This document shows, piece after piece, positions 54,439 to 64,000 of a stretch of 64,000 nucleotides of DNA; within the stretch, counting starts at the first letter, position 1, and every line of letters begins with the position of its first letter. Source of the DNA: Aquificota bacterium (GTDB lineage: Bacteria > Aquificota > Aquificia > Aquificales > Aquificaceae); the NCBI GenBank assembly GCA_030549905.1, contig JAUQQK010000008.1:1-64000 (forward strand), written 5' to 3'. The position numbers and the translations under genes were made by a program. Below the pieces are notes generated by a model. It was not told the origin of the DNA and did no database searches. It was given only the letters and a program-made list of their open reading frames with translations.

Positions 54439-54512
<74 letters not shown>

Positions 54513-54599: not shown

Positions 54600-56897
54600 A
54601 TGCATGTGGATATTCTTATCTTTTTAAGTACAGACAAAGAAGAAGATTACTTTCCTGTTTTTTATGAGGAGCTTGATTTTTTAGGTTTTAGAGAATTTTG
54701 GGAATATCCTGAGTGCAAAGAACCTTTGCTTTGGGGTAAAGATGCTGGGGCTTTTATAGAGTACTGGTATAAAGGCAAGCTTGTAGCAAAAGTAAGAAAG
54801 GGAGCCTTGTTTAAGAAGCATTCTATAAAGTATGTAGAAAGGGGTCTTAGGCTTGAGCCTATGGACGTTGAGAAGCTAAAAAGTCTGTATGAAAGCCATA
54901 TTAGAGACCTGACTAATGAAGCTCTTGATTACATAAACATGGAGGTAGAAAAATTTAAAGAGTTCGGTCATGGTCTTGTAGTTTCTTATAGTGGAGGTAA
55001 AGACTCACAGGTGGTACTGGACCTCCTTCTTCAAGTGATACCATACAAAGACCTTTATGTGGTTTTTACTGATACAAAGATGGAATTGGACGATACATAC
55101 AAAACGGTGGAGCTAACAGAAGAGTATTACAGAAAAATTTTTCCAGATTTTAAAATCCATGTAGTTTCAAGTCCTTTTGAAACTGCAGAACTTTGGGAAC
55201 TTTTTGGACCACCAAGCAGGTTAAAAAGATGGTGTTGTAGTGTGTATAAAATTGCTCCTCAGGTTAAATTTCTGGATAGGTTGGGAAACGCAGGGTCAAA
55301 CAGCGTCCTTGTTTTTGAAGGCACTCGGGCAAGTGAAAGTAAAACAAGAGCAAACTCTTGCAGGACATCTCCAAGAGAAAAAACCTTTAGGGAGATAAAC
55401 ATAAGACCTATTTTTCATTGGAGAGACTTTGATGTTTATATGTATATTCTACTTAAGGAACTTCCTTTGAACCCTCTATACAGAAAAGGTTTTAGGCGTG
55501 TGGGATGTAGCGTGTGTCCTTTTGCTTCAAACTGGTCGGAGTATCTGATTGAAAACTTGTATCCTCACAGAGCGGAAAGGTTTATAAGGGTGCTTGAAAA
55601 CTATGCCTATAATATGGGGGTAGAAAAACAAGAGGAGCTTATAGAGTATATCTCTTCTGGTGCATGGAAAATGAGGGCTGGAGGCGTGGGGCTAAAAAGT
55701 GAGCAATCGGTAGAGTTTCTAAGGGAAGAGAATTCTCTAAAGGCGGTCTTGAAAAGTCGCAGGGAAAACTTTTTTGAATGGGTAAAGACGGTGGGAACTC
55801 TTCACCTTTTGGAAGAAAAGGATGGGTATAAAAAGGGTGAGTTGAGGGTTGGTGATACAGTAATCAAGTTTGTATACAAAGAGAAGGGAGATATAACAAG
55901 AATAGAGTTTCACGACCTTGAACCTCACCCTGTACTTTATTCAAAGTTGGAAAAAGTTCTATATAAGACTACTTACTGTCTTCACTGTACGGGATGTGAA
56001 GTAGAATGTCCTCATTTTGCTGTTATTACCTATCCAAAGGTTGTAGTCAATTCTTCTAAATGTACTCACTGTGGGAACTGTCTTGACTTTTTACCCACAG
56101 GTTGTTATGTGGCGGAGTCTCATGGTATATTTATAATGCCTAAGATGAAGAAGACAGGAAAGCTTAAAATAGACAGATATAATACTTTTGGGCTTAGGGA
56201 GAGGTGGTTGATTAGTTTTATCAATGAAGGAAAGGAATTTCTTTTAAATAATACCTTGGGCGTTAAACAGAAGGAAGCTTTAAAAAGATTTCTTTTTGAT
56301 ATAGGTTGTATAGACAATAAACAAAACATTCTTGAGTTATATGATTTACTCAAGCAAGTTTATAAAAAAGACACCGAAGCCTTCTGGCAAATAGTATGGA
56401 TAGAGTTATGCATAAATTCAGACCTATTCAGATTTTACGTGGAAGAAATACCTTGGGGAAAGGTCTGGACTAAGGAAGAACTGGTTAAAAAGCTGGTAGA
56501 AGAAAAGGGAGTGGCGGAAAGGACTGCAAGGAATGGCATAAATTCGCTTACAAACACTTTTGAGGAGAGTCCTCTGGGTCAATGGTTTGGAAGAAAGGAA
56601 GGGAAGGGTCAATACTTCAAGGTTGGTACTGACAAGGTTAGCAGTCTTGTAGTAGGCTATGCTCTATACAGGCTGAAAGATGTAAAAGGCTGGAGTGAGA
56701 CTACAATAAGGGAACTTGCAAGCATAAAGGAGGGTCCAGTTGGTTGGTTTGGAATGTCCAAAGAAACTCTAAAAGACAAAATTCTCTCACTCAAAAATGA
56801 AAAACTGATTGATGCGGACATTACTGCAGACCTTGACAATGTGTTCTTCTATAATTTTGACTCTAAGGGTTTTCTAAAGGAAGCTTTGAAAGAATGA
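54600..56897 (+). CDS. brxP: BrxP: PAPS-reductase-like protein with ferredoxin and DUF4007-like domains
   Basis: 765 residues: an N-terminal region of about 120 residues without a known fold; a PAPS-reductase/DndC-like domain (about 125-330) with the P-loop SYSGGKDS (129-136), RLKRWCCSVYKIAPQ and VGCSVCPFASNW; a two-cluster ferredoxin-like domain with Cys 460, 463, 466, 470 and 488, 491, 494, 502; and a C-terminal DUF4007-like domain (about 525-690). BrxP replaces the methyltransferase PglX in type 4 BREX and was linked by homology to DNA phosphorothioation. It is the first gene of the operon; AAAGGATG lies eight bases before the ATG. It overlaps the next gene by 4 bases. Confidence 0.88.
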   Translation: MHVDILIFLSTDKEEDYFPVFYEELDFLGFREFWEYPECKEPLLWGKDAGAFIEYWYKGKLVAKVRKGALFKKHSIKYVERGLRLEPMDVEKLKSLYESHIRDLTNEALDYINMEVEKFKEFGHGLVVSYSGGKDSQVVLDLLLQVIPYKDLYVVFTDTKMELDDTYKTVELTEEYYRKIFPDFKIHVVSSPFETAELWELFGPPSRLKRWCCSVYKIAPQVKFLDRLGNAGSNSVLVFEGTRASESKTRANSCRTSPREKTFREINIRPIFHWRDFDVYMYILLKELPLNPLYRKGFRRVGCSVCPFASNWSEYLIENLYPHRAERFIRVLENYAYNMGVEKQEELIEYISSGAWKMRAGGVGLKSEQSVEFLREENSLKAVLKSRRENFFEWVKTVGTLHLLEEKDGYKKGELRVGDTVIKFVYKEKGDITRIEFHDLEPHPVLYSKLEKVLYKTTYCLHCTGCEVECPHFAVITYPKVVVNSSKCTHCGNCLDFLPTGCYVAESHGIFIMPKMKKTGKLKIDRYNTFGLRERWLISFINEGKEFLLNNTLGVKQKEALKRFLFDIGCIDNKQNILELYDLLKQVYKKDTEAFWQIVWIELCINSDLFRFYVEEIPWGKVWTKEELVKKLVEEKGVAERTARNGINSLTNTFEESPLGQWFGRKEGKGQYFKVGTDKVSSLVVGYALYRLKDVKGWSETTIRELASIKEGPVGWFGMSKETLKDKILSLKNEKLIDADITADLDNVFFYNFDSKGFLKEALKE

Positions 56898-57481
56898 ACA
56901 GATATTTAACTTTTGGTCTCAGATTAATCTGGTTTGAGAGTTTTCTTTACGGTCTTGAAGGTTGGCTAAGAGAAAACACGCTTGGACCTGTGCAGAAAAA
57001 AGCTATGAGAAACTACCTTCTGGATATAAAGCTAATAGACCCAAAGGGAAATCTCACACCTCTTGCTTACGAGTTCTCAGAAATTTACCCTAAAGACCCA
57101 AAGGCTGTATGGCAGGTAGTATGGTTAAATCTCTGTTTGAACTCAAAACTTTTCATCTTTTACTGGGTAGCGGTGCCTTTTGGAAGTCAGTGGAGAAAGG
57201 AAGAGCTTATAAAAAAGCTTGTGGAACTTGGTTATGCAGAGAGAACTGCAAGAAACGCAATAAATGCACTAACAAACACTTTTGAGGAAAGTCCTCTTGG
57301 TGAATGGTTTGGGAAAAGAGTGGAAAGAGGCGTCTATTATAAGGAGGGGCTAAGGGAACTGTCCTTTTATGCCTTCAAGAAGGCATATGAGCTTTTTGGA
57401 GAGAACTACGAGCCATATGGCTACATCTTTGGAATTGACAGGGAAGCCTTTAATTACCTTCTGTTAAAATATAACCCATGA
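56894..57481 (+). CDS. stand-alone DUF4007-like protein, paralogue of the BrxP C-terminus
   Basis: 195 residues. It aligns over most of its length with the BrxP C-terminal domain: YNTFGLRERWL versus YLTFGLRLIW, DTEAFWQIVWIELCINS versus DPKAVWQVVWLNLCLNS, and nearly identical ERTARNGINSLTNTFEESPL versus ERTARNAINALTNTFEESPL. The helical ERTARNA(I)NAL block could be a helix-turn-helix, since the preceding residues are KEELIKKLVE. It is placed between brxP and brxC with 4-base overlaps on both sides. Function unknown; a separate copy of the BrxP domain may compete with or replace it in a complex. Confidence 0.85.
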   Translation: MNRYLTFGLRLIWFESFLYGLEGWLRENTLGPVQKKAMRNYLLDIKLIDPKGNLTPLAYEFSEIYPKDPKAVWQVVWLNLCLNSKLFIFYWVAVPFGSQWRKEELIKKLVELGYAERTARNAINALTNTFEESPLGEWFGKRVERGVYYKEGLRELSFYAFKKAYELFGENYEPYGYIFGIDREAFNYLLLKYNP

Positions 57482-60400
57482 AACACTCAGAGCTTGTAGA
57501 GATAAGGAGGGATTATATACCTGTCTTCAGGCTCGGAAATGAGGAACACGAAAGACACTGGAAAAGCTACGTGCCTCATGAGAACTTTCAGGAACTTCTT
57601 GACAAGGTTATTAATATTTTAGAAGGAAAATCAAAGAAAAATGCTGTATGGCTTCAAGGTTCTTATGGAACTGGAAAAACTCATGCTTGCAGTGTTGTAG
57701 CACATCTGGTTTCTGAAGATATAAAAAACATAGAAGATTACATAGAAGGATTGAGACCAGAACTTAGACACCGTTTGAAATATTTCAGAGAAAAATACAG
57801 GTACTTGCCTGTATATATGAGAGGTACTGAAGAAGCTCCTTCCTTGAACCATCTGGAGAAGATATATGTTAGAATTGCTATAAAAAGGGCTCTTCTGAAG
57901 GCAGGTATAAAAGAGGTGATTGAGTATGAACTGGATAAAATCTTAGAGTATCTTCCGCAGATAGTTGCCAAAAAGGGAGAAGAGAAGATACTTCAGGAAT
58001 ACACCTATGGAAAATACGAAAGCCTTTCCGCCTTTCTGGAAGACCTGAAAAAACCTACTCCTGAACCAGAAGCTCTTGAGATGGCAAATTCTATACTGGA
58101 AAAGGAAGAAGGCTTGCACTTTAGCTTTGCTCTTGAAGAATGGCTTGAAAAGGTAAATAAGCTTCTAAAAGATAGAGGTTATTCAGGCATTCTTCTCATA
58201 TGGGACGAATTTACAGAGATAATAAAGTCTGAAAGCCATCATCTTGAGAAGCTTCAAAACCTTGCAGAAAAAAATCAAATCAAGCTAATAATAGTTAGCC
58301 ATGTGGGTGAAGCAGAACTAAGAAGCGTGCTTGAAGAAAAAACATTGCGTAAGATAGAAGACCGTTTTGAAAAGCACAGGCTTAAGCTTGAGGAAATAAC
58401 CGCCTTCAAGATACTTCAGGGTGCCTTTCACATAAAGGACTATCAGAGGATAAAGGAAACCTTTGAAAGGCTGGAGGGTTTGCTAAGGCACATTTCAAGA
58501 CTTTTAGATGACCAGAAAATAGAAAAAGAAGATATCATAAAGGTTTATCCGCTACATCCTTACACTACCCTTTTATGCACGGATATTGCAGAAAGGTTTT
58601 TCTCTGCTACCAGAAGTATGTTTGACTTTTTGTTTGGCTCAGAGAGAGTTTTGTCTGCCTTTCTTGAAAAGACGGTGGAAGAAGAGCCTTTTTTAACGGT
58701 GGATTACCTGTGGGATTACTTTTACCGTGTGGTTGAGGAGGGCAGAAGGGAAGACAGACTCATAGACATACTCAGCTTTTACAATACCTACGCAAACAGG
58801 TGCAGAGAGAAAGGAGAAGAGTATCTGAAGGTTTTTAAGGCTCTGATGGTCTTTAACCTGCTCTACAGGGGCATGGACAGACCCAAGCTGTTTGAAGAAC
58901 CCACGGAGGAAAACATAAAGAGGGCTTACGTGGGAACACCCTTAGAATCAAAGTGTGTAGATGTATTGAGGTGGCTTGAAGAGGAGGATATACTTCACAA
59001 GGACCCAGATGGAAAGTATAGAGTAGATCTTCGCTCTGGTCTTCCACAGCGTGAGATAGATAAGGAAAAGGAAGCACTAAGGAACAAGTATGCTTCTATC
59101 AGCACCGCTTTAAAGGAAATGGACAGAGAAAAACTCAAGGATAGTCTTTCATTAAGAATACTGAGAGAAACATACCTGAACATACTTACCCCTACAGACC
59201 ATCCACTGCAGAAGGAGGAAGACCACACCCTAAACCTTTTCGTGGGTTTTCCTACCACAGAAGCGGAGCGAAACAGATACATAGAAAAATTCAGAGAGCT
59301 AAGCTCCAGCTACTCCAAGGCAGTCTTTATAGTCTATGAAGAGGTCTTCGGAGATAAGAGCCTTGAAAGGTGGATAGACTATAAAGCTCGTGAAAGAGTG
59401 GCTCAAAATCACCAGCTAAATGAACAAAGATACGACTATTCAAGGCATGCCAGCAAAATGTTAGAAGATTATATATCAAAGCTCACGTACGCGCTTATCT
59501 TTTATGAGGGTAATGAGGAAAGATTATCCAGGTCCTTTTTGAAGGACAAGCTAAATATTATCTCCAGAAGGCTATTCGCATACGGACCTGAAAATCTCAA
59601 AGACATTACCAATCAAAACCTGTGGAAAACCTTCTCCTCAGTGCCTAGGCTCGTAGATAATATACTGCAAAGCTCAAGTCTTTCAAGCATAACCCAGAGC
59701 ATAACTTCAAGACCAGACAACGAACTGCTCAACGGTTTGAAGGATAAACATGACAGATACATTTTTGACGACAAGTTTTCAAACACGTATGCGGACCCGG
59801 AAGAACACCCTATTGTAAATATATACGAGCAAATAAAGAACCTCTTCGGTCAGAAGAGAGAAATATCTGCAAAAGACCTTGGTTTTCTTAAAAAACCTCC
59901 TTATGGTCTTTACAACAACAAGGTCAGCCTCTTTATGCTAACGATGGCAATAAAGCCTTTGCAGGAAAAACTCCACAGGGTAGGCTATGGTAAGGTAGAT
60001 ATAGCTACGTTGAAGGACTTTATAGGTCAGTTTTTTGGGCTTTCAAAAACATTAAACCCTATTAGGCTGAGGCTTGGCAGTGAGGAAGAGGAAAAGCTCA
60101 CAAATCTTCTCAGGGATATCTTCTCAAATTTTGTAAGCTTTCAAGAAGAAGACAAAGACCTTATAAAAGTTAGAAACACCATCAGGGAAAATATACAGAG
60201 CAAGCTGAAAAGACCTATATGGAGCCTTGCTTACCTTGATGAAGAAACCCTATCCAGATGGGGAATAGAACCGCAGAGGGTTAAAGATACTATAAGAAAC
60301 CTTTCTTCCTTCATAGGTAGTGCTGATAACTACTCTGAGGAAGATATAAAGAACCTTTATAATGAGTTAGACAGATATAAAAATTCATACTCAGAGTTGT

Positions 60401-60837
60401 TTGGAAATACCAATTACTATGTAATAGGTATGAAAAACCTCATACAACAACGTCTGCAGGGTAGAAACATAAAAGTGGAAGAAGTGGGAACGCTGTTAGA
60501 AACAAGACTAAGCACTAATCCTATATTCTGGAAAGAGGCAGAAGTATCTCATGAGATAGACAGAATAATCAGAGAATTAATAGAGAAAAAGCAAGAAGAG
60601 AAGCAGAAAATAGAAAAGATTTCATCTCCTGTAAGTTCTTTATCTATGCCTTCTCATGAAGAACCATCAGTTGAGGGAATAAAACAAGAAGAAAGAAAGC
60701 AAGAAAGAACAGATATTTATCTAAGGTTAGAAAATCTTAGTAAGGTAGAACTTATGAATTTGATTTCCCACCTTATTAGCCTTTACCCCCACCTCAAAAA
60801 TGAGGTTGAATTATGGCTCTTGTCGAAGGGCTATTAG
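57478..60837 (+). CDS. brxC: BrxC/PglY-type ATPase of BREX
   Basis: 1119 residues. Walker A GSYGTGKTH (G61-T68) and Walker B LIWDEFTE (D243, E244) mark the P-loop ATPase near the N-terminus; the remaining 850 residues are helical and unlike other families. RDYIPVFRLGNEEHERHWKS at the start is typical of this group. BrxC is a large ATPase required for defence and DNA modification in BREX systems. The C-terminal 100 residues (from EKKQEEKQKIEKI on) are low-complexity and charged. The gene overlaps the DUF4007-like gene by 4 bases and pglZ by 25. Confidence 0.9.
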   Translation: MKHSELVEIRRDYIPVFRLGNEEHERHWKSYVPHENFQELLDKVINILEGKSKKNAVWLQGSYGTGKTHACSVVAHLVSEDIKNIEDYIEGLRPELRHRLKYFREKYRYLPVYMRGTEEAPSLNHLEKIYVRIAIKRALLKAGIKEVIEYELDKILEYLPQIVAKKGEEKILQEYTYGKYESLSAFLEDLKKPTPEPEALEMANSILEKEEGLHFSFALEEWLEKVNKLLKDRGYSGILLIWDEFTEIIKSESHHLEKLQNLAEKNQIKLIIVSHVGEAELRSVLEEKTLRKIEDRFEKHRLKLEEITAFKILQGAFHIKDYQRIKETFERLEGLLRHISRLLDDQKIEKEDIIKVYPLHPYTTLLCTDIAERFFSATRSMFDFLFGSERVLSAFLEKTVEEEPFLTVDYLWDYFYRVVEEGRREDRLIDILSFYNTYANRCREKGEEYLKVFKALMVFNLLYRGMDRPKLFEEPTEENIKRAYVGTPLESKCVDVLRWLEEEDILHKDPDGKYRVDLRSGLPQREIDKEKEALRNKYASISTALKEMDREKLKDSLSLRILRETYLNILTPTDHPLQKEEDHTLNLFVGFPTTEAERNRYIEKFRELSSSYSKAVFIVYEEVFGDKSLERWIDYKARERVAQNHQLNEQRYDYSRHASKMLEDYISKLTYALIFYEGNEERLSRSFLKDKLNIISRRLFAYGPENLKDITNQNLWKTFSSVPRLVDNILQSSSLSSITQSITSRPDNELLNGLKDKHDRYIFDDKFSNTYADPEEHPIVNIYEQIKNLFGQKREISAKDLGFLKKPPYGLYNNKVSLFMLTMAIKPLQEKLHRVGYGKVDIATLKDFIGQFFGLSKTLNPIRLRLGSEEEEKLTNLLRDIFSNFVSFQEEDKDLIKVRNTIRENIQSKLKRPIWSLAYLDEETLSRWGIEPQRVKDTIRNLSSFIGSADNYSEEDIKNLYNELDRYKNSYSELFGNTNYYVIGMKNLIQQRLQGRNIKVEEVGTLLETRLSTNPIFWKEAEVSHEIDRIIRELIEKKQEEKQKIEKISSPVSSLSMPSHEEPSVEGIKQEERKQERTDIYLRLENLSKVELMNLISHLISLYPHLKNEVELWLLSKGY

Positions 60838-62936
60838 AAAAACTAAGAAAAATAGATGAGAGTCCATACGAGAGAAGCTTGGCTGTTCGCTTTGTTTTAC
60901 TTAGAACTTTTTCAGGTCTGCGTTCTTTAGATAAGGAATTAAGGGAAAAGGGTTATAAAACCTTCTATCTTGAAAACTTTATAAGAGAGGGTAAGAACTG
61001 GCTTTCTATAGAAGACTTGAAAAGGATAGTAGAGGACCTTTTAAAAGAGGCTGGCTATAGTTTTTTATTTTCTGCTTGCAACCTTTTACGTTTCTATTCT
61101 GACGACGAGCTTAAAAAACTGCTTTACTCTTTTGAAAGATATAGACCTCCTTTTGAGATTACAGACAGAAAAGTTGTTTTAGTGCTTTCTGGAATAGGTC
61201 AAAGAGTGAAAAGGTTCATAGGTGATAATCCTCTGGTGGTAGAGCTTCCAGAAGAGGAAAATCACAGAGTGCAACTTTATGTATTAAACCCGCAACTTGA
61301 GATTAATGTGGAACTTTTAAACTTTAAACAACTACTTGAACTTTGGAAGAAAAAAATAGAAAAAGCCTTTATAAAGCTTGATTACATATACAAAAGGTCA
61401 AAAAACGCCTATCCTGACGATGCGGTAGTGGTTGAAAAGATAGACAGCTATAAGGAATTTCTGGAAAAGGTTTATGGTATATACGACGAGCTGTTTAAAG
61501 AAGAGGAAGTATGCGAGTTTATCGTAAAAGAGCTACAAAGGGAAGAAAAAAGCAATATAGAAGAGCTAAGTATAGTAAAAAGCTTAGGAAATCAGAAGGA
61601 TTTACTGCTTATTACCTTTCTGAAGGAGCCTACAAAAAGCAAAAGGGTATTCTATTTATATCTGTTGAAAAAGCTTTTTGATTTTCCAAAGTCTTTACTA
61701 TCTGAAGACCCTATTGAGCTTCTGGAAAGTATCTATCGTTTAGGAGAGATAGAGCTTTTGAAAAAAATACTTATAGAGATACCGAGCTATGAGGAGGAGC
61801 TTTGTAAAAAAATTAATGGACAATTTATAAGAGGGCTTCTTGATTGTGAAAAAAGACACTTGCTTATTTCCTATGCGGAAGGTAAAATTGAAGAAGATGA
61901 ATTACTGAAGGTAGAAGACTTCTGTAACTACCTTTATGACCCATACGACCTTACAGATATACCCTTTGACTGGCTTAGGAGATACTTTACCCTATACAAA
62001 AGGGCTAAACTGAAGGATATAAAGGACGAAGAGCTTGAAAAACTCCTCGAAGAAAATTCTTCAGAAGACAAGTTCTATTCTTGGTATGCATACTTTAGAA
62101 GTCCGAAAGAAGCTCTTGAGAATTTAAGAAGTGAGGCGGATGAGATATACTGGATAGATGCTCTTGGTTTTGAGTGGGCGGGCTTTACTGTAAAGTATTT
62201 CTTGCAGAAAGGTTTAAACGTAATACGTTTTGAAGTTCTGAAGGCACAGCTACCAAGTATAACAGAAGAAAATAGGTTAGAAAATTGCCAGTATATAAGA
62301 GATTTTGATATGCTTTTGCATCAAACTTATGAATACCCTGAAAGTTTTTTAGAGCAAATCAGGAAACTTAAAGATATTTTCAAGAGTATATACAGTCCAA
62401 ATAAAAGAATTCTTATCATTTCTGACCATGGTTCTACCTTCTTATCAAGACTTTATGAACCGTTGAAATATGAGGTGCAAGCTCTTCATAGTGGAAGATA
62501 CACAAAAGATTTCATAGATACTCCTCATGTGTTGAAAAAGGAAGAATATTTCATTGCAAAATTCCACAGTTCCTTGAAACACAAACCTTATTCAGAAGTC
62601 CATGGAGGTGCAACTCCAGAAGAAGTGCTGACCTTTGCCTTGCTATTTGCTCCGTACGGTGCGGAAAAAAGGGTAAAGGTAAAGCTTGAAAATAAAAAAG
62701 TTCCAAGAATTGGTGAGCTTGTCCTTTCCTTTTATCCGATAGTACCAAAAGGACTTACCATATATATAGACAGGAAACCTGTAAAGTTTGAAACAAAAGG
62801 AGATAAAGTGATTGTGAATTTAAAAGAAGTAAAACTTAGGACTGGAAAGCACATTTTAAAAGTGACTGGTGAAGGTATAGACGAAAGCATTGATTTTGAG
62901 GTGGTTGGAGGGCTTTTAGAAGATGAACTATTCTGA
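60813..62936 (+). CDS. pglZ: PglZ-type alkaline-phosphatase-fold protein of BREX
   Basis: 707 residues. The C-terminal third has the PglZ (alkaline phosphatase superfamily) domain: IYWIDALGFEWAGF (D449) and LIISDHGSTFLSRLYEP (D538, H539) supply metal ligands. FHSSLKHKPYSEVHGGATPE (HGGxxxEE type) completes the site. The N-terminal part (about 1-430) is a helical region of BREX PglZs. PglZ is the one component common to all BREX types and is needed for defence. It overlaps brxC by 25 bases and brxL by 14. Confidence 0.9.
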   Translation: MALVEGLLEKLRKIDESPYERSLAVRFVLLRTFSGLRSLDKELREKGYKTFYLENFIREGKNWLSIEDLKRIVEDLLKEAGYSFLFSACNLLRFYSDDELKKLLYSFERYRPPFEITDRKVVLVLSGIGQRVKRFIGDNPLVVELPEEENHRVQLYVLNPQLEINVELLNFKQLLELWKKKIEKAFIKLDYIYKRSKNAYPDDAVVVEKIDSYKEFLEKVYGIYDELFKEEEVCEFIVKELQREEKSNIEELSIVKSLGNQKDLLLITFLKEPTKSKRVFYLYLLKKLFDFPKSLLSEDPIELLESIYRLGEIELLKKILIEIPSYEEELCKKINGQFIRGLLDCEKRHLLISYAEGKIEEDELLKVEDFCNYLYDPYDLTDIPFDWLRRYFTLYKRAKLKDIKDEELEKLLEENSSEDKFYSWYAYFRSPKEALENLRSEADEIYWIDALGFEWAGFTVKYFLQKGLNVIRFEVLKAQLPSITEENRLENCQYIRDFDMLLHQTYEYPESFLEQIRKLKDIFKSIYSPNKRILIISDHGSTFLSRLYEPLKYEVQALHSGRYTKDFIDTPHVLKKEEYFIAKFHSSLKHKPYSEVHGGATPEEVLTFALLFAPYGAEKRVKVKLENKKVPRIGELVLSFYPIVPKGLTIYIDRKPVKFETKGDKVIVNLKEVKLRTGKHILKVTGEGIDESIDFEVVGGLLEDELF

Positions 62937-64000
62937 ACTTGACAGGAAAATAAGAGACATTTTTCCTGAAGAAAGTGTGTATAAAGATGATAGTGTGAGG
63001 GCTATATTTTCTGGAAGAAAGTTACCTTCCTTCATAAAAGACTGGCTGATAAGTAAATACACAGATACAGATACAGGCAAGGTAGATAAGGAAGGTATCC
63101 TTGACTTTCTCGAAAGACATATTCCGCAAGGTGAAGAAGTAAAACTAAGGCTTATAAAATATCCAGGAAAACCTATAAAGCTATTATTAAGAGTTATAGT
63201 TGAACCAGATATAAAAAGTGGTCTTATGCGTTTTTATGCTCCTGACATAGGTCTTAAGAGAGATGAAGGAATAGTTTCAAACATGCTACTGGAAGAAGGT
63301 CTAAGTGTAGGAGAACACTGGGGAGTGTGTGAGCTTGTATACAGAAAAGAAGAAAACAAATTAGGTTATGTGGAACTTATTAACTTTAAACCCTTTAGAC
63401 CTTACAGGGTAAATGTTGAATACTACATGCAAGCAAGAAGAGAGTTTAAGCTGGAAGAGTGGTTAGACCTTTTAGTGAGGTCTATGGAATATAATCCTCA
63501 TGCACTTGATAAAGATGAAAAACTTATGTTGATTCGAAGGCTTTTAGTGTTTGTAGAACCAAACTTAAATGTAATAGAGTTGGCTCCTAAGGGAACTGGT
63601 AAATCTTACGTTTTTTCAAACCTCTCCAAGTATGGCATACTACTAAGCGGTGGTTATGTATCAAGAGCTAAGCTTTTTTACGACCTTCAAAGAAATACGG
63701 AAGGCATAATAACCAAGTATGACTTTGTAGCTCTTGATGAAGTACAAACTATTCGTTTTAGCGATGAGGATGAGATAAGGGGAGTTTTGAAAAGTTATTT
63801 GGAAAACGGTACTTTCAACATAGGCAACTACAGGGGTGTAGGACATGCGGGTTTCGTTCTTTTAGGAAACATACCGCTCGATGATGAAAAAAGACCAGTA
63901 GAAAGCTTTTATTTTAAAGAGCTTCCAGAGGTTTTTCATGAGTCTGCTCTTCTGGATAGGTTCCACGGCTTTATTGAAGGTTGGAAGCTTCCACGTTTTA
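62923..64000 (+). CDS. brxL: BrxL: Lon-like AAA+ protein, 5' part
   Basis: 359 codons from the ATG at 62923, open to the window end. Walker A APKGTGKSYVFSNLSKYG (G224, K227) and Walker B YDFVALDEVQTI (D272, E273) are followed by DRFHGFIEGWKLPR, a BrxL-specific motif. The N-terminal part (1-200) precedes the ATPase; the Lon-protease-like C-terminal domain is beyond the window. BrxL forms a ring around DNA in studied systems. It starts inside the pglZ end, 14 bases before its stop. It is the fourth core gene of type 4 BREX. Confidence 0.9.
   Translation, partial: MNYSELDRKIRDIFPEESVYKDDSVRAIFSGRKLPSFIKDWLISKYTDTDTGKVDKEGILDFLERHIPQGEEVKLRLIKYPGKPIKLLLRVIVEPDIKSGLMRFYAPDIGLKRDEGIVSNMLLEEGLSVGEHWGVCELVYRKEENKLGYVELINFKPFRPYRVNVEYYMQARREFKLEEWLDLLVRSMEYNPHALDKDEKLMLIRRLLVFVEPNLNVIELAPKGTGKSYVFSNLSKYGILLSGGYVSRAKLFYDLQRNTEGIITKYDFVALDEVQTIRFSDEDEIRGVLKSYLENGTFNIGNYRGVGHAGFVLLGNIPLDDEKRPVESFYFKELPEVFHESALLDRFHGFIEGWKLPRF

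What the first reader, a model, noticed from the sequence alone, without database searches (positions are those of the whole stretch)
54600..64000. BREX type 4 defence operon in a thermophilic autotroph
Five overlapping genes encode BrxP (PAPS-reductase-like in place of the methyltransferase PglX), a DUF4007-like protein, BrxC, PglZ and BrxL. This is the brxP-brxC-pglZ-brxL order described for type 4 BREX, with one extra gene. Type 4 is, to my knowledge, the least studied type: how BrxP marks self DNA is unclear. All ATPase and metal-site motifs visible here are intact, so the system looks functional. A thermophilic source would give stable proteins for biochemistry.
Basis: partly seen in the sequence, partly recalled or inferred. 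Interest (0 to 1): 0.85.

Follow-up and report, generated by a model that had tools for sequence, protein, structure and literature searches.

The report
Type 4 BREX with duplicated subunit
A heat-loving bacterium carries an intact phage-defence operon of the kind that marks its own DNA with sulfur (BREX type 4), with one extra gene that is a second, separate copy of the operon's own DNA-recognition domain, in a host that seems to lack the usual enzyme for supplying that sulfur.

Summary
Window 54600-64338 (the end lies beyond the window, on the same contig) is a tight five-gene operon: brxP, an extra gene, brxC, pglZ, brxL. Profiles place it firmly in BREX type 4, and nearly all residues conserved across ~50-70 relatives are kept. 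(1) BrxL has no protease domain beyond 64000; it is the short 471-aa type-4 form. (2) Self-marking by type 4 is no longer unclear: published work ascribes DNA phosphorothioation to brxPCZL. (3) The 'extra gene' is a stand-alone paralogue of BrxP's own C-terminal DUF4007 (SspB-like) domain. All four complete Aquificota loci have fused plus separate copies; 6 of 62 other type-4 loci do too, always between brxP and brxC, apparently from several duplications. It is under purifying selection and folds confidently, so it is probably a working subunit: most likely a hetero-dimer partner or second recognition unit. A further finding bears on mechanism: in all four such hosts the only NifS/IscS-family protein has lost the PLP lysine, and no canonical cysteine desulfurase was found, so BrxP may draw sulfur from sulfide. 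New variant of a known kind; function untested.

The parts
54439..54512 (+). tRNA-Met (CAU) directly upstream of the operon; the island starts behind it
   Evidence: ARAGORN; the same tRNA follows the same peptidase gene in four same-genus genomes, with different genes behind it
54600..56897 (+). brxP, 765 aa: PP-loop (PAPS-reductase-like) sulfurtransferase domain 126-307 with SGGKDS 131-136 and Cys 212/213/303/306; ferredoxin-like Fe-S region 460-502 (8 Cys); C-terminal DUF4007 (SspB-like) domain about 523-765
   Evidence: PADLOC PDLC02510 687 bits; Pfam PF01507 128 bits; conservation; AlphaFold model mean pLDDT 86
56894..57481 (+). extra gene, 195 aa: stand-alone paralogue of the BrxP C-terminal DUF4007 domain, lacking the final beta-wing
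   Evidence: matches only positions 525-664 of the BrxP model; alignment; 4-bp ATGA overlap with brxP and with brxC; AlphaFold pLDDT 97.5
57478..60837 (+). brxC, 1119 aa AAA+ ATPase; Walker A around 61-67 (GSYGTGK), Walker B DE 243-244
   Evidence: PADLOC BrxC 341 bits; conserved residues kept
60813..62936 (+). pglZ, 707 aa, type-4 PglZ, alkaline-phosphatase-like metal-dependent enzyme; D449, T484, D538, H539, H597
   Evidence: NCBIfam NF033445 BREX_PglZ_4 237 bits, cut-off 140; conserved residues kept
62923..64000 (+). brxL, 471 aa in full (stop at contig position 64338, beyond the window): N-terminal domain plus AAA+ ATPase, no Lon domain
   Evidence: PADLOC PDLC02505 637 bits over 4-471; Pfam BrxL_N and BrxL_ATPase; PDB 8emc matched by 2-457

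Best explanation
This is a horizontally acquired, intact BREX type 4 (phosphorothioation-based) phage-defence operon. Shown by sequence: the five genes, their family membership, intact motifs, and that the extra gene is a conserved paralogue of BrxP's DUF4007 domain. Inferred from published type-4 and Ssp work: BrxC forms an AAA+ ring on DNA, the DUF4007 modules read the target site, and the BrxP PP-loop domain activates the backbone phosphate and inserts sulfur; PglZ (nuclease) with BrxL (DNA-translocating ATPase) attacks unmarked phage DNA. Inferred here: the extra 195-aa protein pairs with the DUF4007 domain tethered on BrxP, so that a recognition dimer (SspB is a dimer in its crystal) becomes an asymmetric hetero-dimer of one tethered and one free half. 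Also inferred: in this host the sulfur probably does not come from a canonical cysteine desulfurase, and sulfide entering through BrxP's Fe-S/Cys sites is the simplest alternative.
For: Family assignment and intact active sites. Published phosphorothioation by brxPCZL and the type-4 domain scheme: PMC11931770, PMC12839542. Extra gene: fused plus separate pair in all 4 complete Aquificota loci, three genera beyond this one; in 6 of 62 further type-4 loci at the same position, brxP | extra | brxC; Aquificota extras form one clade, 100/99, next to the fused copies of the same loci, 99/91; dN 0.17-0.42 with dS above 2 or saturated, like the fused domain; model pLDDT 97.5. Link to SspB: profile-profile E 2e-23 with the SspB-type proteins of Ssp-like loci, PDB SspB 6juf/6lb9 at E 0.0021, Pfam DUF4007 in 39 of 72 members. 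SspB crystallised as a dimer and interface residues are vital for function (PMC9240713). Acquisition: GC 0.35-0.40 against 0.45 for the contig upstream, GC3 0.29-0.40 against 0.49-0.50, behind a tRNA, and no type-4 BrxP in the 13 other genomes of the genus. Sulfur: the only strong NifS/IscS homologue of G000, G021, G024 and G064 reads AHLMYGPKG where desulfurases have HK; E. coli IscS K206A has no desulfurase activity (PMC9978102) and A. fulgidus IscS without the lysine is inactive (PMC7585200).
Against: No experiment: neither phosphorothioate nor phage resistance was or could be tested. The hetero-dimer is not modelled (single-chain predictions only). The extra-gene model found no significant fold match in the PDB, not even SspB or BrxA (best E 0.58), so the SspB relation rests on sequence profiles. 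The window's own extra protein does not hit Pfam DUF4007. Most sampled type-4 loci have no extra gene. The lysine-less NifS could retain slow activity, or another sulfur relay could exist.
Confidence: 0.6

Rival explanations
1. The extra DUF4007 gene is a second target-recognition subunit with a different sequence specificity, exchanging with the tethered copy as HsdS subunits do, so that the operon marks two motifs.
For: DUF4007/BrxA-like modules are proposed as target-recognition units (PMC12839542; PMC10853773). Apparently recurrent duplication and two extra copies in Cryosericum (L037) suit diversification.
Against: In Aquificota the extra copy lacks the final wing of the third module, so it may not bind DNA like a full copy. 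Recognition residues are unknown.
Confidence: 0.25
2. The extra gene is a regulator or decoy: a truncated recognition domain that restrains BrxP or absorbs a phage inhibitor.
For: Truncation of the third module in all four Aquificota copies; a separate gene allows independent dosage.
Against: Core residues of modules 1 and 2 are kept and purifying selection equals that on the fused domain, and several other extras are near full length (L034, L096, L074).
Confidence: 0.15
3. Ordinary four-gene BREX type 4; the extra gene is a dispensable relic of duplication.
For: 56 of 66 sampled type-4 loci have no separate copy; the canonical Methanosphaera operon has four genes.
Against: Conserved in four loci from four genera at about 50-57% identity with dN/dS well below 1, with overlapping start and stop codons, and duplicated elsewhere too.
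Confidence: 0.15
4. The operon does not make phosphorothioate here; BrxP does another sulfur or adenylyl reaction, or the system is silent because no cysteine desulfurase feeds it.
For: No canonical desulfurase was found in the host and none is encoded in the operon.
Against: BrxP keeps the conserved catalytic and Fe-S residues. [4Fe-4S]-dependent sulfurtransferases (TtuA, NcsA, LarE) exist (abstracts), and M. [quoted passage not shown]
Confidence: 0.12

Closest known systems
BREX type 4 (brxPCZL), e.g. Methanosphaera sp. ISO3-F5 plasmid pNP174 (NZ_CP118754)
   Same: brxP (PAPS reductase + Fe-S + DUF4007), brxC, pglZ of the BREX-4 family, short brxL, same order
   Different: one extra DUF4007 gene between brxP and brxC
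Type-4 loci with fused plus separate DUF4007: G021, G024, G064 (same family), Coprothermobacteraceae L035 and L096, Candidatus Cryosericum L037, Syntrophaceae L034, Pseudomonadota MAG L049, uncultured bacterium RUG13696 L074
   Same: same order with an extra DUF4007 at the same place
   Different: several appear to have arisen by separate duplications; Cryosericum has two extras; some extras keep the third module; L011 and L074 loci are cut before brxL by contig ends
Ssp-type phosphorothioation modules (SspB-SspC-SspD)
   Same: PP-loop sulfurtransferase, DUF4007/SspB and an AAA+ ATPase (loci L095-L112; profile match)
   Different: there the PP-loop and DUF4007 proteins are separate single copies without a PglZ-BrxL pair in the operon; here one copy is fused and one separate, with PglZ and BrxL
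BrxA of type 1 BREX
   Same: proposed BrxA-like tripartite HTH/wHTH architecture of DUF4007 (PMC12839542)
   Different: no Foldseek match of the extra protein obtained here

Membership tests
BREX type 4 | BrxP: PAPS-reductase-like protein in place of the PglX methyltransferase, with Fe-S region and DUF4007 | tested here: met
   PDLC02510 687 bits over 18-750; PF01507; conserved residues
BREX type 4 | BrxC AAA+ ATPase | tested here: met
   PDLC02472 341 bits, residues 1-1075
BREX type 4 | PglZ of the type-4 family | tested here: met
   NF033445 237 bits, above cut-off 140
BREX type 4 | short BrxL without Lon or HKD domain | tested here: met
   471 aa, PDLC02505 2-478 of 482, no C-terminal domain
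BREX type 4 | no PglX, BrxA or BrxB gene in the operon | tested here: met
   none among the operon genes or the proteins scanned in the 4.6 kb after it; the MTase 8 kb on is type IIG
BREX type 4 | phosphorothioate in host DNA | not testable with these tools
   needs LC-MS or PT-seq
BREX type 4 | phage resistance | not testable with these tools
   needs plating or transformation assays
DUF4007 / SspB family (the extra gene) | sequence-profile relation to DUF4007/SspB | tested here: met
   family alignment A5 vs SspB-type alignment A7: 99.5%, E 2e-23; 39 of 72 members hit PF13182; the window protein alone does not hit it
DUF4007 / SspB family (the extra gene) | structural match to SspB or BrxA | tested here: not met
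   Foldseek PDB search of the confident model: no match at E <= 0.001; lowers the claim of a shared fold, not the sequence relation
DUF4007 / SspB family (the extra gene) | DNA nicking or dimerisation, as for SspB | not testable with these tools
   needs purified protein
Ssp system (SspABCD-SspE) | separate SspB and SspD, SspE effector, no PglZ or BrxL | tested here: not met
   BrxP is a fusion; PglZ and BrxL present; no SspE among the neighbouring proteins scanned
BREX type 1 | PglX/BrxX methyltransferase plus BrxA and BrxB | tested here: not met
   absent from the operon

The most novel reading that the evidence does not exclude
A recurrent five-gene subtype of BREX type 4 in which a duplicated recognition domain forms an obligate asymmetric dimer (one half tethered to the sulfurtransferase, one free), working in sulfide-rich hosts without a cysteine desulfurase, so that DNA is phosphorothioated directly from sulfide through BrxP's Fe-S centre.
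Probability: 0.2. Interest if true: 0.75.

Novelty: new variant of a known kind. Interest (0 to 1): 0.45.

Why it matters
Type 4 links the BREX and phosphorothioation fields and has little biochemistry. This locus gives a probably thermostable set with two separable DUF4007 modules, which makes the question of who reads the target site testable by deleting a single small gene. It also sits in hosts with no recognisable cysteine desulfurase, which would test whether DNA phosphorothioation can run on inorganic sulfide.

Tried and rejected
PF08665 (Pfam PglZ) in the own genome: no hit; the type-4-specific NCBIfam model hits instead. Single-sequence scans of genome contigs and viral contigs with BrxP found no relatives; a 7-sequence alignment gave 80 loci. 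Foldseek of the extra protein against the PDB: nothing significant. Single origin of all extra genes: the AU test disfavours it (p 0.024), with long branches as a caveat. Attachment-site repeat of the tRNA 3' end on the contig: none found down to 14 nt. Clean empty site: not obtained, because a gene that lies behind this tRNA in sister genomes is 33 kb upstream on the same contig here. The downstream helicase plus methyltransferase as part of the BREX system: rejected. BrxC and PglZ against PDB sequences by phmmer: none. Yuan et al. (PMC12914056) was not held, so whether it describes the extra gene is unknown. PADLOC already has a short 265-position 'BrxP' model (PDLC02511) that matches both copies, so stand-alone DUF4007 genes in type-4 loci were probably known to its authors.
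Full report
WHAT IS THERE. The contig (G000:C24, 78,602 bases) carries five + strand genes in an unbroken operon with overlapping ends: 54600-56897, 56894-57481, 57478-60837, 60813-62936, 62923-64338. Profile scans name them BrxP, a BrxP C-terminal-domain relative, BrxC, PglZ (type-4 model, above its curated cut-off) and BrxL. Residues kept in at least 95% of relatives (67 BrxP, 55 BrxC, 49 PglZ, 51 BrxL) are kept here with two conservative exceptions in BrxP, so nothing suggests decay. The full BrxL is 471 aa and stops after the ATPase domain; it aligns to 5-458 of a 679-aa BrxL of known structure and lacks the rest.

WHAT TYPE 4 IS KNOWN TO DO. Papers of 2025-2026 list brxPCZL as a third phosphorothioate-synthesis family next to dnd and ssp, citing Yuan et al. 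2024 (PMC11931770; PMC12839542). [quoted passage not shown] In the passages read, no locus with both a fused and a separate copy is mentioned; the word 'paralog' does not occur in the text; supplements were not read.

THE EXTRA GENE. The 195-aa product matches only positions 525-664 of the 779-position BrxP model, is about 45% identical to BrxP's own C-terminal domain, and lacks the last wing of the third module. In Aquificota only five genomes of 136 have a true BrxP; the four with a complete brxP-brxC stretch (this genus and three others) all have fused plus separate copies, and the fifth is cut by a contig end. A scan of 84,980 species genomes with a BrxP alignment gave 80 loci. Pooled with the other fetched loci, 66 have a fused BrxP with BrxC; 10 of them (4 Aquificota, 6 others) have a separate DUF4007 gene, always between brxP and brxC; Cryosericum has two. 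This is not an unbiased frequency, since the query alignment contained Aquificota sequences. In the domain tree the Aquificota extras form one clade (100/99) beside the fused copies of the same loci (99/91), L074 is a recent tandem duplicate, and the extras of L034, L096 and L037 group together (97/94); one common origin for the extras is disfavoured (AU p 0.024, long branches noted). On the BrxP tree the trait needs several changes. Pairwise dN is 0.17-0.42 with dS above 2 or saturated, much as for the fused domain. The AlphaFold model is very confident (pLDDT 97.5) but has no significant PDB match. The relation to SspB therefore rests on profile-profile comparison (E 2e-23), a weak HMM hit to the SspB crystal sequence (E 0.0021), and PF13182 hits in 39 of 72 family members.

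LIKELY MECHANISM. From published work: BrxC scaffolds on DNA, DUF4007/SspB modules recognise the site, the PP-loop domain of BrxP sulfurates it, and PglZ (a metal-dependent nuclease in type 1, PMC12205998, title) with BrxL acts on unmarked DNA. SspB crystallised as a dimer whose interface is needed for function (PMC9240713). A fused plus a free copy would let the dimer be made of one BrxP-tethered half and one free half; this is my preferred reading of the extra gene, inferred and untested.

SULFUR SOURCE. No desulfurase gene lies in the operon. In the genome the only NifS/IscS-family protein (C26:56924-58141) reads SFTAHLMYGPKG where desulfurases have the PLP lysine (the type-4 locus L032 has SASAHKFGGPKG), while its Cys loop (SGSAC) is intact. 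The same Leu is found in all 24 family-f1 proteins examined and a Tyr in family f3. Some relatives (G016, G018, G044) have a second copy with the lysine, but the four f1 BREX carriers do not. E. coli IscS K206A lacks desulfurase activity (PMC9978102) and A. fulgidus IscS without the lysine is inactive, while M. maripaludis uses sulfide for Fe-S clusters (PMC7585200). Sulfurtransferases that work with a [4Fe-4S] cluster (TtuA, NcsA, LarE) are known. BrxP has a PP-loop, conserved Cys 212/213/303/306 and an 8-Cys ferredoxin-like region. That BrxP uses sulfide here is a hypothesis.

SETTING. The operon follows a tRNA-Met (54439-54512). Its GC (0.35-0.40) and GC3 (0.29-0.40) are below the contig upstream (0.45) and two upstream genes (GC3 0.49-0.50); the other 13 genomes of the genus have no type-4 BrxP. 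The same tRNA has other cargo in relatives: an element with a tyrosine integrase in G007, ATPase and cyclase-like genes in G006. No attachment repeat was found. The genome has reverse gyrase, which supports a thermophile. The taxon was not named by any tool; Aquificaceae/Aquificota is my inference from genome size, reverse gyrase and gene content.

VERDICT. A real, intact and probably functional BREX type 4, of a recurrent but little-noted five-gene variant. The type is known; the duplicated recognition domain and the lysine-less NifS of the host are the parts worth following.

Noticed in passing
G000:C26:56924-58141 (L113:1471-2691): The only NifS/IscS-family protein of the genome has Leu (AHLMYGPKG) where the PLP Schiff-base lysine belongs, with the Cys loop intact; the same in all 24 family-f1 genomes examined (75-94% identity outside the window genome) and Tyr in family f3. 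No canonical cysteine desulfurase was found in the four BREX-4 carriers.
   Followed up: partly
contig C24 68962-75669 (L001:6063-12770, beyond the window): PLD-SNF2 helicase plus small ORF plus type IIG Eco57I-type MTase, preceded by a nucleotidyltransferase and a 399-aa protein without Pfam match; full-length helicase relatives in several other genomes of the genus.
   Followed up: partly
window 54439-54512: tRNA-Met locus is a variable site in the genus: BREX-4 here, an integrase-bearing element in G007 (L132), AAA/cyclase-like genes in G006 (L129), housekeeping genes in G011 and G013.
   Followed up: partly
L031:3878-4297, L045:11441-11902, L048:11420-11854, L051:5398-5835, L052:11427-11876, L056:8845-9294, L057:4807-5244: These gut Bacteroidota-type BREX-4 loci carry a different small gene (139-153 aa) in the same brxP-brxC slot; the two tested have no convincing Pfam or PADLOC match.
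   Followed up: partly
L068:15455-17114: In a Selenomonadaceae BREX-4 locus the end of pglZ and the first 271 residues of brxL lie inverted between the rest of the two genes: a possible invertible switch or an assembly error; only weak inverted repeats near the ends.
   Followed up: partly
L037:11308-12944: Candidatus Cryosericum hinesii has two separate DUF4007 genes besides the one fused in BrxP.
   Followed up: no
L095:20-6085, L098:4204-10257: Two Ssp-like loci have the order sspB-sspC-sspD with the PP-loop gene last, unlike the other Ssp-like loci found.
   Followed up: no
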